DNA of 64,000 nt from Leptotrichia shahii (lineage in GTDB: Bacteria > Fusobacteriota > Fusobacteriia > Fusobacteriales > Leptotrichiaceae): NCBI RefSeq assembly GCF_008327825.1, contig NZ_AP019827.1, forward strand, positions 1,798,001 to 1,862,000. Reading direction: 5' to 3'. Below, in pieces: positions 3,049-8,164 of this stretch (position 1 is its first letter; each line of letters begins with the position of its first letter). Both the position numbers and the translations under genes were made by a program. The notes under the pieces were generated by a model. It saw nothing but the letters and a program-made list of their open reading frames with translations, searched no databases and had not been told where the DNA came from.

Positions 3049-3076
3049 GCAAGGATTACTAAACTTTAATCCTTGC
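3049..3076 (-). terminator. Rho-independent terminator after gpmA
   Basis: A perfect 10-bp inverted repeat, GCAAGGATTA / TAATCCTTGC, encloses an 8-nt loop. On the minus strand it is followed by GTTTTTTGTATTTTTT. It lies 22 bp beyond the gpmA stop codon and closes the metal-ATPase/gpmA transcription unit or units. Confidence 0.9.
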
Positions 3077-3098: not shown

Positions 3099-3785
3099 CT
3101 AAAAAGAATCTGGTGATGAAACTACATTTAAATCTTTGTCTATTTCAAAAATTAAAGGTTTTCCAGTTGTTAAATTCAATTTCAAAATATCTTCATCTGA
3201 AATATTTAACAAATATTTTATTAAAGCTCTCAAGCTGTTTCCGTGAGCTGCTACAATAACATTTTTCCCTTCCTGCAAACTTTTTGAAATGTCTGAATGC
3301 CAGTATGGCAAAACTCTTGCGATTGTATCTTTCAAACTTTCTCCAAGCGGCGCTTCTTCGTCAGTCAAATCAGCATATCTTCTGTCTGATTTTGGATAAT
3401 ATTCACTTAATTTGTCAATTGCAGGTGGCGCAACATCAAAACTTCTTCTCCAAATAAGCACTTGGTCATCTCCATATTTCTTAGCTGTCTCTGCTTTGTT
3501 CAATCCTTGCAATGCACCGTAATGACGTTCATTCAATCTCCAAGATTTATAAACTGGAATATACAATTCATCCAATTCTTCCAAAACATAATTTAAAGTT
3601 TTGATAGCTCTTTTTAAGTAAGATGTATACGCAACATCAAAAACTAAGCCTTGTTCTTTTAATGCTTTTCCTCCAGCTTTTGCTTCTTCGACTCCTTTAG
3701 GACTCAAATCCACATCTTTCCATCCTGTAAATTTGTTTTCCAAGTTCCATTGGCTTTCACCATGTCGAATCAATACTAATTTCAT
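3099..3785 (-). CDS. gpmA: 2,3-bisphosphoglycerate-dependent phosphoglycerate mutase
   Basis: Interconverts 3- and 2-phosphoglycerate in glycolysis through a phosphohistidine intermediate. At 228 residues it is the usual dPGM length. The RHGES motif (histidine 8 being the one phosphorylated) leads into [18 protein letters not shown], the typical dPGM N-terminus. The [13 protein letters not shown] stretch with the catalytic Glu lies around residues 86-99, and the second catalytic histidine is in [15 protein letters not shown] near residue 181. An AGGAGG-type Shine-Dalgarno sequence (AGGAGGAAAAGAT) precedes the ATG. A strong terminator follows directly. It lies 39 bp downstream of the metal-ATPase operon on the same strand and may be partly co-transcribed with it. 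Confidence 0.95.
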
Positions 3786-3824: not shown

Positions 3825-4112
3825 CTATTTTGTTTCAGCTTCTACAACTGTTTCTACAACAGCTGAATTTGTAGAAAGTTCTTTTTCAGCAATTAAATCT
3901 TCAAGATGCTCTTTTGTAGTCATCAATTCTTCAAGATTCATATTGTCATAAGCTGCTTGAGAAGATGTTTTTATATTTATTCCTTGTTTTCGAAGAAAAC
4001 TATCAACTTTACTTTGATTTTTTTTATATAAATAATAACCTATTGCAACTGTTCCCACTCCTATTGCCGCTCCTACCAAATGTTCTTTTTTAACATTTCC
4101 AATTTTTATCAT
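3825..4112 (-). CDS. Small single-span membrane protein at the end of the metal-ATPase operon (PacL/DUF6110-like by architecture)
   Basis: A 95-residue protein with one hydrophobic segment at about residues 12-28 (LVGAAIGVGTVAIGYYLY), then a basic stretch and an amphipathic, Glu-rich helix (NLEELMTTKEHLEDLIAEKE). The C-terminus is acidic and has no His/Cys metal motif. It is the last of five genes in the HMA/P-type ATPase operon, 39 bp after the preceding HMA-like gene. Small proteins of this shape accompany P1B ATPases elsewhere: mycobacterial PacL proteins beside CtpC/CtpG/CtpV, and DUF6110-type proteins in Firmicutes. The resemblance here is one of size, topology and context only, so a scaffold or partner role for the ATPase is inference. 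Confidence 0.7.
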   Translation of the reverse strand: MIKIGNVKKEHLVGAAIGVGTVAIGYYLYKKNQSKVDSFLRKQGINIKTSSQAAYDNMNLEELMTTKEHLEDLIAEKELSTNSAVVETVVEAETK

Positions 4113-4151
4113 ATTCTTACCTCCAAATTTTAATTATCATTTTTAGTTTTT

Positions 4152-4898
4152 TTATTTTAAAGCTATATATTTGTCATCTGATTCATTCCCCGCCCTGTTA
4201 CTAAAAAATATATGATCTATTAAATCACTCAAATTTTCGATGGAATTATCGTCTTTTACATCTACAACATAATGAAATTTTCCATTATCAGATTTCAATC
4301 TGTAAATTCTCACTTCCTTGTTTGAAAAATTATTTAGTACAAGATGCCGTCCAAAAGTTGTAAGCCACATAAGTGCTATTGCTACAACTGATCTATTTGC
4401 CATATAGGATTTAAGCAAATACAAGGCAGGCAATATTTCTATGTCAAAAAAACCTTTCCGCCGTGTTTCCATATAAGCATGTTCCATAATTGCTGCTGTT
4501 GTAAGTCCTGCTGTAAAATTATTTATATCCAATTGTAATTTTTCAATTTTACTTTTTCCAAGTCCATACAAAAAAGAAAGCAGTATTGCGGCTCCAGAGT
4601 ATACAGACAATGAATCTATTGATTTTTCCTCAAAATCTTCCACCAGTTTTACTGAAGTCATACCATGCTCAACCGATAGTGCTGTCGCAGTTCGATAAAT
4701 CACTTCATCAATCGTAATTTCTTCTGGCTCAAAAGTTATAAGCAATGTATTTATAGTTCGATTATACCGTAAAGCTGTACTTTTTGCTCCAACTTTTATT
4801 GTTTCAAAAAATTTTTTTGTGTCAATAATTTCATGTGAAACTTTAAATCTGACACGATTTGGTAATTTATGCAATACCGTCAAAGTTAATTTTTTCAT
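4152..4898 (-). CDS. HMA-like membrane protein resembling a truncated P1B-ATPase N-terminus
   Basis: 248 residues. Residues about 1-85 look like an HMA_2-type ferredoxin fold (LHKLPNRVRFKVSHEI, then NTLLITFEP), with no CxxC metal motif. After this come a hydrophobic segment at about 100-112 (SGAAILLSFLYGL) and further ones near 130-185 (TAGLTTAAIMEHAYMETRR, VVAIALMWLTTFGRHL), resembling the first membrane helices of the neighbouring ATPase (compare its TLSSTAIISSIALGSERTALTIM region). There are no DKTGT, TGE or nucleotide-binding motifs, so it cannot be a pump by itself. It sits 36 bp after the ATPase gene. It could be a regulatory or assembly subunit. The function is unknown. Confidence 0.75.
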   Translation of the reverse strand: MKKLTLTVLHKLPNRVRFKVSHEIIDTKKFFETIKVGAKSTALRYNRTINTLLITFEPEEITIDEVIYRTATALSVEHGMTSVKLVEDFEEKSIDSLSVYSGAAILLSFLYGLGKSKIEKLQLDINNFTAGLTTAAIMEHAYMETRRKGFFDIEILPALYLLKSYMANRSVVAIALMWLTTFGRHLVLNNFSNKEVRIYRLKSDNGKFHYVVDVKDDNSIENLSDLIDHIFFSNRAGNESDDKYIALK

Positions 4899-4933
4899 AT
4901 AATTTCCTCCAAATCAGATAAAACACAAAAATC

Positions 4934-7117
4934 CTATTTGTTGACATCATATTTTAGAAGTCTTAATGAATTTCCAACTACTAAAATTGTTATTGAATTA
5001 TGCAAAACTGAACTATATATCGCTGGCAGCAATCCTGTCGCACCTAATACAAGTGCGAAACTGTTTATTCCAATTGCCATTGCGAAATTTTGCTTTATAA
5101 TTTTTACAGTATTTTTAGCCAGACCGATTACAGCCGGTATTAACAACGGATCATCAGAAGTTATTGTAACATCGGCAGCTTCCATTGCAACATCGGTTCT
5201 AGTGCTTCCAAGTGCTATTCCCACATTTGCATAAGAAAGAGCTGGAGCGTCGTTTATTCCATCTCCAATCATGATAACTTTTGATCCAATTGAACGGAAT
5301 TTTAAGATGTCCTTCGCTTTGTCTTCTGGCAGCAATTCTGATTCATATCTGTCCATCGACATTCTTGACGCAATAGTTTCAGCTTGCTGTTTCAAATCTC
5401 CTGTAAGTAGCACAATATCGTCTATTCCTTGATTTCTCAAACGGTTCATAGCTTTTTTGATATTTTCCCTTGGTGGATCAGAAACTCCGATTACACCGAT
5501 TAAATTCTCATTTTTAGCCACATAAATAACGATTTCGCCGTTATTTTGCATTCCTTTTACCACATCAGCTGACATTTCTACCAAAATATTATTTTCTTCC
5601 ATGTATCTTCTGCTTCCTACACGAATTATGTCCCTATTTACATAAGTTTCAATTCCTCTTGCCACTTTAATTACATCTTCTTTATGTCGTGGTATTTTTA
5701 ATCCTCTATTTCTTACTTCGTTTAAAATTGCACTTGCCAAAGGATGTGTGGAAGTTTCTTCAGCAGCCGCAGCTAATGCAATCATTCTATCATCTTTCAT
5801 ATTTTTAGCAAAAGTTTTTACTGTTTGAACTTTAGGTTTTCCTTCTGTAATTGTTCCAGTTTTATCAAATATTACTGTATCAGCCTTTGAAAGCTCTTCC
5901 AAATAGTTGCTTCCCTTAATCAAAATTCCATTTTTAGCAGCTGTATTAATTGAAGCAGAAAATGCTGTTGCTGTCGATAGTCTTATTCCACATGAATAGT
6001 CAATTACAAGCATACTCAAAGCCTTTTGTAAATTTCTGGTCGAAGCGTAAACTATTCCAGCAAGAAGGAAATTTAACGGAATCAACTGTGCAGAAAATGC
6101 ATCGGCATAAGATTGAATGTCTGCTTTATTAAATGAAGCGTCTTCCACCAATTTTATAATTCTTGAAGCGGTTCTGTCGTCTCCAACTTTTTCAGCTCTT
6201 ACAGTTATATTTCCACTTTTTAAAAGTGTTCCAGCAAAAACTTCCTGTCCAGTTTCCTTCTTAACAGGCATATATTCTCCAGTAATTGCTGACTGGTCAA
6301 TTACCGCACTTCCCTTTTCAATTGTTCCATCGACACTTATTTTTTCTCCAGTTTGAACAAGTATCAAATCACCTTTTTTAATTTCTTCAATTGGAACTTT
6401 TTTCGCCACTTGGTCTTCATCTTCAGACGCTTTCCAAACATAGCTTTCTCCAACACTTAGCATATCTTTAATTACGCCACGAGTTTTTTTCATAGTATAA
6501 GCCGTCAAAAGTTCTGCAATTCTTTCCAAAATCATAATTGTCAAAGCTGTTCGCTCACTTCCCAAAGCGATACTGCTTATTATCGCTGTAGAACTCAATG
6601 TATCCGCATTCGGCCGCTTATTTTTAATTAATGAAAAAATTCCATTTTTTAAAACAGGCAACGCTAAAGAAATTGTTGAAAGAGTTTTGTAGTTAAACAA
6701 TCTTCTAATTTCAGTCAACTTCGTTTTTGAACCTGGAAGTAAAAGCAGCAATACCGCAGCTCCGATATTCTTCATAATTTCTTTCGGCGATTCTTCCTGC
6801 AATCGTCTTTCTATCACATATTTATTCGATGTTTCCTTTTTTTCATTTTTGTAAATATCAACCAAATACACATTCAATGTATTTTGAAGCAAAGGCACAA
6901 AATTTTCTCCAGTTAGCGAAAAGTTATCAGAATAAATAAGTATAGAACCTGTAATAGTTGAAATTTCAACACTTTTTATATAATGAACTTGCATTAAACG
7001 CTTTGTTATTTCTTCTTTGTGAACACCAAGATGTTTTAGCGCTCTTGAACGAATTCTAATTCTTCCACGAATTTCATGTAAAATTTCACAATTCAGCAAA
7101 TAATTTCTACTAGCCAT
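4934..7117 (-). CDS. Heavy-metal-translocating P1B-type ATPase with N-terminal HMA_2-like domain
   Basis: A 727-residue inner-membrane pump. The N-terminal domain (about 1-75) has the pattern HEIRGRIRIRS...VEISTITGSILIYS and lacks CxxC. Core P-type motifs are complete: ITGEYMPV (TGE 279-281), phosphorylated Asp 418 in DKTGTIT, the HP dipeptide 458-459 typical of P1B pumps, and GDGINDAPAL (618-627). The intramembrane metal motif is DYSCGIRLS (Ser375-Cys376) in place of the CPC of copper or zinc/cadmium pumps. The last helix ends in HNSITILVVGNSLRLL. These features point to a CtpC-like, possibly Mn/Fe/Zn-type exporter rather than a copper pump. The metal is inferred and not certain. It is flanked on both sides by HMA-like genes in one operon. 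Confidence 0.93.
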   Translation of the reverse strand: MASRNYLLNCEILHEIRGRIRIRSRALKHLGVHKEEITKRLMQVHYIKSVEISTITGSILIYSDNFSLTGENFVPLLQNTLNVYLVDIYKNEKKETSNKYVIERRLQEESPKEIMKNIGAAVLLLLLPGSKTKLTEIRRLFNYKTLSTISLALPVLKNGIFSLIKNKRPNADTLSSTAIISSIALGSERTALTIMILERIAELLTAYTMKKTRGVIKDMLSVGESYVWKASEDEDQVAKKVPIEEIKKGDLILVQTGEKISVDGTIEKGSAVIDQSAITGEYMPVKKETGQEVFAGTLLKSGNITVRAEKVGDDRTASRIIKLVEDASFNKADIQSYADAFSAQLIPLNFLLAGIVYASTRNLQKALSMLVIDYSCGIRLSTATAFSASINTAAKNGILIKGSNYLEELSKADTVIFDKTGTITEGKPKVQTVKTFAKNMKDDRMIALAAAAEETSTHPLASAILNEVRNRGLKIPRHKEDVIKVARGIETYVNRDIIRVGSRRYMEENNILVEMSADVVKGMQNNGEIVIYVAKNENLIGVIGVSDPPRENIKKAMNRLRNQGIDDIVLLTGDLKQQAETIASRMSMDRYESELLPEDKAKDILKFRSIGSKVIMIGDGINDAPALSYANVGIALGSTRTDVAMEAADVTITSDDPLLIPAVIGLAKNTVKIIKQNFAMAIGINSFALVLGATGLLPAIYSSVLHNSITILVVGNSLRLLKYDVNK

Positions 7118-7152
7118 AAAATTTCCCTTTCTTTTTCCTTTTCCGTCAAAAC

Positions 7153-7524
7153 TTAAAGTTTTTTTATCAAATCATAAAAAACTTCCAAATTATCTTCTAT
7201 TTCCTTCAAGGATTTATTTTGATACAATTCAGGATGATTAATCACAGTTTTCCAAACTTTATTCATCCATTCTAATATTTCCTTTTCTGAAATCAAATTC
7301 GGGTCGTAATAAAGTAAAATTTTATTTGTTATGTATGAATACTCAACGCTTTTTATCCCTTTTTTTGATAAAATAAATTTCTTAACTTCATCATCATATT
7401 TTTTCAATTCTTCTGGAACATTTGATAAATTTGGAACAAATAGCCTAAGTCTTCCAGGAATACTGTGGACTACCTTTATCTGATTAAATATTAGATATGT
7501 TGTTCTAAAAAAATTTTCTAACAT
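7153..7524 (-). CDS. Small soluble HMA_2-like domain protein
   Basis: 123 residues. VVHSIPGRLRLFVPNL at about 19-34, followed by KGIKSVEYSYITNKILLYYDP at about 55-75, repeats the beta-alpha-beta pattern found at the N-terminus of the adjacent ATPase (HEIRGRIRIRS...IKSVEISTITGSILIYS). It lacks a CxxC metal site. The C-terminal third (WMNKVWKTVINHPELYQNKSL) is a helical, charged tail. The gene is 35 bp upstream of the ATPase and 26 bp downstream of another HMA-like gene, so it is surely in the same operon. A role as accessory or regulatory domain for the ATPase is inference. Confidence 0.78.
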   Translation of the reverse strand: MLENFFRTTYLIFNQIKVVHSIPGRLRLFVPNLSNVPEELKKYDDEVKKFILSKKGIKSVEYSYITNKILLYYDPNLISEKEILEWMNKVWKTVINHPELYQNKSLKEIEDNLEVFYDLIKKL

Positions 7525-7550
7525 CCTTTTCCCCTTTAATTTTTTGTCTT

Positions 7551-8036
7551 TTATTTTCTTTTTTCATCTGATAAAAGTCTGGAAGCCCACCACAACAATG
7601 TAGCCCCTTTAGGCAATCCTGGTACTTTCCATAATTTTTTAATTCCGTAAAAAATAAAAATACCCGCAGTCAATGTCTTAAAATCCAAATAACCTCTACT
7701 TTTATTATAAACAGCCATATCTGCTGATTCAAATATCTGTTTTAACAATTCTCTTATTCTTCCAGGCTTATTCTTCAAGGCTTCCTCATCCAAATGAAGC
7801 AATCTTAAGACTACTAAATACAAAAAGGAACTTTCAATAACTTTTTCATCAAAATAAATTAAGATGCTTCCAGTAATAGAATTGACTTCCACAGAATTTA
7901 TCCCGACTATTCGCCGAATATTATGCAAAAATTCCTCTTTCAACTCTTTATCATCTTTCAGCACTTCTGTCTGCAGTCGCAAACGCGCGTTTTGGTAATG
8001 TTTCACTTGAATAATGCCATAAAAACTTTGTAACAT
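7551..8036 (-). CDS. HMA_2-like protein with C-terminal hydrophobic segment, first gene of the metal-ATPase operon
   Basis: 161 residues. The N-terminal half matches the HMA_2-like pattern (VKHYQNARLRLQTEV, then VGINSVEVNSITGSILIYFDE), nearly identical in the second part to the ATPase N-terminus. The C-terminal part has two moderately hydrophobic stretches, LDFKTLTAGIFIFYGIKKLW (about 122-141) and LPKGATLLWWASRLL (about 143-157), which could be hairpin or peripheral membrane segments. No CxxC is present. It is the promoter-proximal gene; the promoter lies at 8065-8093 and the Shine-Dalgarno is AAGGAG. The function is unknown but tied to the ATPase by operon position and shared domain. Confidence 0.78.
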   Translation of the reverse strand: MLQSFYGIIQVKHYQNARLRLQTEVLKDDKELKEEFLHNIRRIVGINSVEVNSITGSILIYFDEKVIESSFLYLVVLRLLHLDEEALKNKPGRIRELLKQIFESADMAVYNKSRGYLDFKTLTAGIFIFYGIKKLWKVPGLPKGATLLWWASRLLSDEKRK

Positions 8037-8064: not shown

Positions 8065-8093
8065 ATTATATAACTTTTTATTTTAAATTACAA
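8065..8093 (-). promoter_or_regulatory. Promoter of the metal-ATPase operon
   Basis: On the minus strand, TTGTAA and TATAAT are separated by exactly 17 bp, ending about 28 bp before the first ATG. It is divergent from the truA promoter at 8136-8164. No clear inverted-repeat operator could be recognised between them. Confidence 0.75.
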
Positions 8094-8135
8094 GATAGAT
8101 TTTTTTCATAATTTTTCTAAATTTTTATTTTTACC

Positions 8136-8164
8136 TTTACTTTAGGCAAAATTAACGATACAAT
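8136..8164 (+). promoter_or_regulatory. Promoter of truA
   Basis: TTTACT and TACAAT are separated by 17 bp, 41 bp before the truA start. It sits back-to-back with the metal-ATPase operon promoter. Confidence 0.65.

What the first reader, a model, noticed from the sequence alone, without database searches (positions are those of the whole stretch)
3825..8036. Metal-ATPase operon with three separate HMA_2-like partner proteins and a PacL-like small protein
The N-terminal HMA_2-like pattern (S.TGSILIY and related) of the P1B ATPase recurs in three other proteins of the same operon: one soluble, two with hydrophobic segments. None has CxxC. The ATPase has Ser-Cys instead of CPC in its metal site. 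A fifth small single-span protein resembles PacL/DUF6110 partners of CtpC-type pumps. This looks like a multi-subunit metal exporter in which the extra HMA domains are regulatory or structural.
Basis: partly seen in the sequence, partly recalled or inferred. Interest (0 to 1): 0.6.

Follow-up and report, generated by a model that had tools for sequence, protein, structure and literature searches.

The report
Ferrosome-like metal pump operon, five genes
A five-gene operon in the oral bacterium Leptotrichia, always inherited as a block in its relatives, encodes a metal pump of the type that fills bacterial iron-storage vesicles (ferrosomes), plus three helper proteins with metal-domain folds that have lost every metal-binding cysteine and one small membrane anchor.

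Summary
On the minus strand, 8036-3825, five genes encode: an HMA_2 protein with a hydrophobic hairpin (PF19991, E 4e-51), a soluble HMA_2 protein (8e-9), a complete P1B ATPase with its own N-terminal HMA_2 domain (2e-10), a 248-aa HMA-fold plus four-helix membrane protein, and a 95-aa single-span protein. None has CxxC; the four partners have no cysteine at all. The ATPase has Ser-Cys in TM4 and His-Asn in TM6, the P1B-6 signature. The five genes occur together in the same 30 of 98 Fusobacteriota genomes, in the same order in all 23 neighbourhoods read, and as HMA2-HMA2-ATPase-HMA2-small protein on Priestia megaterium plasmids. The ATPase is sister (96/93 support) to P1B-6 pumps of six-gene proteobacterial operons that look like fez (ferrosome) operons, and the small protein is related to the one encoded just upstream of those pumps (hhalign E 4.5e-6). 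So I read it as a divergent fez-like operon that probably pumps Fe(II) (or Mn(II)) into an internal compartment, not primarily a resistance exporter. The DUF6110/DUF1490 (PacL) label is not met by profile search. No Fur or DtxR box was found at its promoter. Metal and organelle are inferred, not shown.

The parts
8065..8093 (-). sigma-70-like promoter TTGTAA-17-TATAAT, 28 nt upstream of the first gene; sequence conserved in the other Leptotrichia upstream regions read
7551..8036 (-). gene 1 (P0001, 161 aa): HMA_2 domain plus hydrophobic C-terminal hairpin
   Evidence: PF19991 E 3.9e-51; predicted HMA fold, Foldseek prob 1.00 to RAN1, CopZ and PacS HMA domains
7153..7524 (-). gene 2 (P0002, 123 aa): soluble HMA_2 protein without Cys
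   Evidence: PF19991 E 8e-9; no hydrophobic segment
4934..7117 (-). gene 3 (P0003, 727 aa): P1B-6-type ATPase with N-terminal HMA_2; TM4 SC (375-376), TM6 HN (706-707), DKTGT, TGE, HP, GDGINDAP
   Evidence: TIGR01525 E 9.7e-170, PF00122/PF19991, motifs, tree
4152..4898 (-). gene 4 (P0004, 248 aa): divergent HMA fold (res. 4-87), four helices (96-186), C-terminal beta-beta-alpha tail
3825..4112 (-). gene 5 (P0005, 95 aa): single-span protein with Gly-rich TM (res. 11-29) and conserved C-terminal 'EELxxxKExLEDxIAE' helix
3099..3785 (-). gpmA (phosphoglycerate mutase), 39 nt after gene 5; probably in the same transcript, in Leptotrichia and one close genus only; not part of the conserved unit
3049..3076 (-). 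intrinsic-terminator-like hairpin after gpmA (GCAAGGATT..AATCCTTGC GTTTTTT)

Best explanation
A divergent fez-like (ferrosome-type) operon. The P1B-6 ATPase hydrolyses ATP and moves a divalent metal, most likely Fe(II), through the TM4 Ser-Cys / TM6 His-Asn site out of the cytosol, most likely into the lumen of an internal membrane vesicle. The single-span gene 5 protein gathers pumps in the membrane through its Gly-rich helix and contacts them with its C-terminal charged helix. The three HMA_2 proteins and the pump's own HMA_2 domain no longer carry metal through cysteine pairs; they act as protein-protein docking or regulatory modules of one membrane complex. Shown here: gene content, domains, motifs, obligate linkage, relation to the pumps and small proteins of six-gene proteobacterial operons. 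Inferred: metal, direction, vesicle, roles of the helpers.
For: Complete catalytic motifs plus SC/HN. Tree: the window clade (Fusobacteriota + Priestia) is sister, with 96/93 support, to SC/HN pumps of Vibrio, Azospirillum, Cereibacter, Arcobacter and others, apart from the Rhodococcus DUF1490-linked CPC pump. The Azospirillum operon has six genes ending in the pump; R. [quoted passage not shown] P0005 family versus the small single-TM protein just upstream of those pumps: hhalign prob 86.6, E 4.5e-6, controls about 0.2%. Iron context in the sister clade: Fur gene next to the operon (L102), FeoA domain (L104), FeoA and siderophore receptors (Cereibacter). In the window's own clade: dtxR-troABC lies next to the operon in two Leptotrichiaceae genera, flavodoxin-DUF2023 just upstream in several Fusobacteriaceae genomes. 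C. difficile fezXAB stores iron phosphate in ferrosomes and fezA/fezB are Fur-repressed (PMC11533511, PMC12574912). Co-occurrence 30/30.
Against: No verified FezB sequence could be fetched, so fez identity of the sister clade rests on operon shape and recalled literature. No FezC/DUF4405-type gene in the operon. No Fur box and no DtxR box at the operon promoter in any of 23 loci, although a perfect DtxR box sits before dtxR-troABC in the same genome. The dtxR neighbours are a separate transcription unit (own promoter, hairpin between). Leptotrichia also has ferritins. The metal could be Mn or Zn.
Confidence: 0.5

Rival explanations
1. A plasma-membrane efflux platform (effluxosome-like): the pump exports toxic Fe, Mn, Zn or Cd from the cell; the single-span protein clusters pumps as PacL does in M. 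tuberculosis; the HMA_2 proteins regulate it.
For: Architecture of P0005 (TM plus cytoplasmic helix) and pairing with a P1B pump parallel PacL1-CtpC (PMC9374683); some Fusobacteriaceae homologues of P0005 have C-terminal Cys (TCEACE, QCDISC), like a PacL metal-binding tail; no iron-starvation box.
Against: The ATPase is SC/HN, not CPC, and groups away from the DUF1490-linked pump; no DUF1490 or DUF6110 match; no Cys/His tail on the Leptotrichia P0005; the pump clade sits among iron-linked operons.
Confidence: 0.3
2. A manganese homeostasis pump coupled to DtxR/MntR-TroABC uptake: it exports or stores Mn(II).
For: dtxR-troABC sits directly downstream in two sister genera; in the window's genome a zur-like gene with znuABC is a separate locus, so TroABC is likely Mn/Fe.
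Against: Separate transcription units with a hairpin between; adjacency in only two genera; no DtxR box at the operon.
Confidence: 0.15

Closest known systems
fez (ferrosome) operons, FezB P1B-6 ATPase
   Same: SC/HN P1B-type pump with N-terminal HMA_2, HMA2 partner gene, small single-TM protein with a C-terminal ERLED-AE helix, compact operon (compared through putative fez operons of Azospirillum, Vibrio, Arcobacter)
   Different: three HMA_2 partners instead of one; no ferritin-like/DUF2202, YtxH-type or FezC cytochrome gene; own subclade; no Fur box; organelle not shown
Priestia megaterium plasmid operon (pBM400, BMQ_RS25875-RS25895)
   Same: five genes, HMA2-HMA2-P1B ATPase-HMA2(TM)-single-TM small protein; ATPase 39% identical; same clade
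   Different: TM4 reads IC not SC; shorter gene 4; plasmid-borne; uncharacterised
PacL1-CtpC (DUF1490) and DUF6110-P1B6 pairs
   Same: single-span partner encoded with a P1B pump; HN in TM6
   Different: CtpC has CPC; PacL has a C-terminal metal motif; profile does not match P0005; the Rhodococcus locus read has no separate HMA_2 gene
CxxC HMA metallochaperones (CopZ/MerP, PF00403)
   Same: fold
   Different: no cysteine at all in any of the three partners

Membership tests
P1B-6 ATPase | P1B catalytic core (DKTGT, TGE, HP, GDGxNDAP) | tested here: met
P1B-6 ATPase | SC instead of CPC in TM4 and HN in TM6 | tested here: met
   S375-C376, H706-N707; C376 and HN invariant in 25 rows; HN as a P1B6 feature from PMC9374683; SC from recalled P1B classification
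P1B-6 ATPase | groups apart from CPC pumps | tested here: met
   96/93 branch holding all SC/HN rows and excluding Rhodococcus and G207/G332/G344 CPC rows; two long-branch rows (Gloeothece, G184) without SC also fall inside it
fez (ferrosome) cluster | contains a FezB-type P1B-6 ATPase with small membrane partners | tested here: inconclusive
   right type of pump and related small protein, but no authentic FezB sequence available
fez (ferrosome) cluster | FezC/DUF4405-like cytochrome (D. magneticus type) | tested here: not met
   no such ORF within the operon; defining only for some fez clusters
fez (ferrosome) cluster | Fur-repressed (C. difficile type) | tested here: inconclusive
   no convincing Fur-box-like site upstream; the box of this organism is not known
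fez (ferrosome) cluster | forms iron-phosphate membrane organelle | not testable with these tools
   needs electron microscopy
PacL (DUF1490) / DUF6110 | Pfam profile match of the small protein | tested here: not met
   0 of 24 members match at E up to 0.5; PF19605 absent from the window genome; the PF19605 search rang nowhere in 389 genomes, so that genome search has no positive control
PacL (DUF1490) | single TM, cytoplasmic helix, operon with P1B pump | tested here: met
PacL (DUF1490) | C-terminal metal-binding motif | tested here: not met
   no Cys/His tail in the window protein; Cys tails only in some Fusobacteriaceae homologues
HMA_2 (PF19991) | profile match above cut-off | tested here: met
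   P0001, P0002 and ATPase N-terminus; P0004 below cut-off alone but HMA by profile-profile and fold
CxxC metallochaperone (HMA, PF00403) | CxxC metal site | tested here: not met
   no Cys in P0001, P0002, P0004

The most novel reading that the evidence does not exclude
A second, separate lineage of ferrosome-type organelle builders, spread through Fusobacterium and Leptotrichia and on Priestia plasmids, in which metal-dead HMA_2 proteins (one of them an HMA domain fused to what may be the pump's first four membrane helices without catalytic domains) form the scaffold of the organelle or pump.
Probability: 0.3. Interest if true: 0.7.

Novelty: new variant of a known kind. Interest (0 to 1): 0.47.

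Why it matters
P1B-6 pumps are among the least characterised P1B pumps and the core of ferrosomes. A five-gene version fixed in oral and gut Fusobacteria, including a relative in F. vincentii, gives a simple genetic test of whether these bacteria make iron-storage vesicles, and of what HMA folds do when they cannot bind metal through cysteine.

Tried and rejected
Inverted repeat TTTTGCCT-N7-AGGTAAAA at 8129-8151 upstream of the operon: not conserved in other Leptotrichia, near matches in the window at chance level and scattered in the genome; rejected as an operator. Fur and DtxR boxes upstream: none convincing. Homology of the P0004 membrane part to the ATPase's first four TM helices: only suggestive (8 of 500 shuffles for the window pair, 28 of 500 for the Priestia pair; hhalign E 0.057 with Priestia, 0.36 without); not claimed. 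Ferritin absence as support for iron storage: ferritins are present in Leptotrichia. DUF6110 search in 389 genomes: no hit anywhere, so uninformative. Primary ferrosome papers (Grant 2022, Pi 2023) are not in the library; P1B-6 identity of FezB and sufficiency of fez operons in foreign hosts are recalled from their abstracts.

Full report
WHAT IS THERE. The window comes from a Leptotrichia genome (closest named records L. hongkongensis and L. sp. oral taxon 879, ATPase 88% identical). Five genes run on the minus strand from 8036 to 3825, from a sigma-70-like promoter at 8093-8065 whose sequence is conserved in the other Leptotrichia read. gpmA follows after 39 nt, with a hairpin terminator at 3076-3049. 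Gene 1 (161 aa) is a strong HMA_2 protein with a hydrophobic hairpin, gene 2 (123 aa) a soluble HMA_2 protein, gene 3 (727 aa) the P1B ATPase with its own HMA_2 domain, gene 4 (248 aa) a membrane protein, gene 5 (95 aa) a single-span protein.

HMA FOLDS WITHOUT METAL CYSTEINES. Genes 1, 2 and the ATPase pass the PF19991 cut-off; gene 4 does not on its own (E 0.14). Its family matches the families of genes 2 and 1 by profile-profile comparison (E 2.4e-8; [quoted passage not shown] prob 0.93-0.96). Gene 1 gives HMA hits at prob 1.00. E-values of these fold hits are weak, as expected for 70-residue domains. None of the four partners has any cysteine; the pump has Cys10 and Cys376 only. Classical CxxC metal transfer is therefore excluded for the partners.

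THE PUMP. All catalytic motifs are present. TM4 has D373-Y-S-C376 and TM6 has H706-N707; D373, C376, H706 and N707 are invariant across 24 Fusobacteriota sequences and Priestia. HN in TM6 is a stated P1B6 feature, and CtpC differs by a CPC (PMC9374683). In a 34-row tree the SC/HN pumps form a 96/93 branch, which excludes the Rhodococcus DUF1490-linked pump and three other CPC pumps; two long-branch rows without SC (Gloeothece, G184) also fall inside it. Within it, the Fusobacteriota plus Priestia group (100/99) is sister to the pumps of Vibrio, Azospirillum, Cereibacter, Arcobacter and others.

LINKAGE. Gene 4 homologues occur in 30 genomes, all in two families of Fusobacteriota; HMA_2 hits of the operon type occur in the same 30 of 98 Fusobacteriota genomes; gene 5 homologues occur in the same 30 plus one fragment in G038. 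All 23 neighbourhoods read show the same order, while the flanking genes differ between genera; gpmA follows only in Leptotrichia and one close genus. Priestia megaterium plasmid pBM400 and relatives carry HMA2-HMA2-ATPase-HMA2(TM)-small protein; the alignment of the P0005 family with the Priestia small protein keeps 11 invariant positions, including the C-terminal KE-ED-AE motif.

RELATION TO FERROSOME OPERONS. The sister pumps sit in operons that carry, in Azospirillum, six genes ending in the pump, and in Vibrio, Arcobacter, Cereibacter and two unnamed loci similar sets with HMA2 and/or single-TM proteins. R. palustris makes ferrosomes from six fez genes (PMC12016538). The P0005 family is related to the single-TM protein encoded immediately upstream of these pumps (hhalign E 4.5e-6; controls at background). 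Iron context there: a Fur gene beside one operon, FeoA domains beside others. C. difficile fezXAB stores iron phosphate and FezA/FezB are Fur-repressed (PMC11533511; PMC12574912); FezB is a putative ferrous iron transporter (PMC10979944). That FezB is a P1B-6 ATPase is recalled from the primary papers, which are not held.

METAL AND REGULATION IN THE WINDOW'S OWN CLADE. In two Leptotrichiaceae genera a DtxR-family gene and troABC-type uptake genes follow the operon, as a separate transcription unit with a DtxR box. In several Fusobacteriaceae genomes flavodoxin and DUF2023, typical iron-starvation genes by established knowledge, lie just upstream. The operon promoter itself shows no convincing Fur or DtxR box, whereas dtxR-troABC in the window's genome has a perfect one. 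Iron is the best guess, manganese second.

MECHANISM. Shown: a conserved five-protein unit with a complete P1B-6 pump. Inferred: the pump moves Fe(II) from the cytosol into an internal compartment; gene 5 clusters pumps through its Gly-rich membrane helix and C-terminal helix, as PacL does for CtpC; the Cys-free HMA_2 proteins dock on the pump or on each other and regulate or scaffold it. A plasma-membrane efflux platform remains a serious rival.

VERDICT. A real, conserved operon and a new variant of a known kind (fez-like P1B-6 clusters), interesting because it would extend ferrosome-type systems to Fusobacteria with a distinct helper set. Not a categorically new system.

Noticed in passing
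window 3099-3785: gpmA sits 39 nt behind the metal operon with no terminator between, only in Leptotrichia and one close genus: a glycolytic enzyme probably co-transcribed with the pump operon.
   Followed up: partly
L068 7544-7840, L070 7685-7981, L063 7632-7934, L073 3560-3871: Homologues of the small single-span protein in several Fusobacteriaceae genomes have C-terminal cysteine motifs (TCEACE, QCDISC, ECDVTC) that Leptotrichia lacks; reminiscent of the PacL metal-binding tail.
   Followed up: no
L078 5056-7238; L070 4711-6896: The ATPase reading frame is interrupted near the end of the HMA_2 domain in two genomes (G012, G081), splitting off the N-terminal domain; real or sequencing error unknown.
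   Followed up: no
G038:C108:2896-3030: A 47-residue remnant of the small protein in a genome where no gene 4 homologue was found: possible decay of the operon.
   Followed up: no
L112 7849-7884 (own genome C1 about 1895850-1895885): Classic DtxR box TTAGGTCAACCTAA plus a near copy upstream of dtxR-troABC in the Leptotrichia genome.
   Followed up: partly
L101 6788-13025, L103 3605-10618, L104 4057-10130: Three non-Fusobacteriota loci carry two P1B pumps side by side, one SC/HN and one CPC with 'LLHI.HT' in TM6, near FeoA-type genes: possibly a paired system.
   Followed up: partly
NZ_CP084075.1 (L081): A 2.1-Mb F. vincentii record filed as a plasmid in PLSDB appears to be a chromosome.
   Followed up: no
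MT836292.1 (L108): An 'unverified bacteriophage' contig from faeces carries a P1B-6-like pump and anaerobic ribonucleotide reductase genes; looks like a bacterial contig.
   Followed up: no
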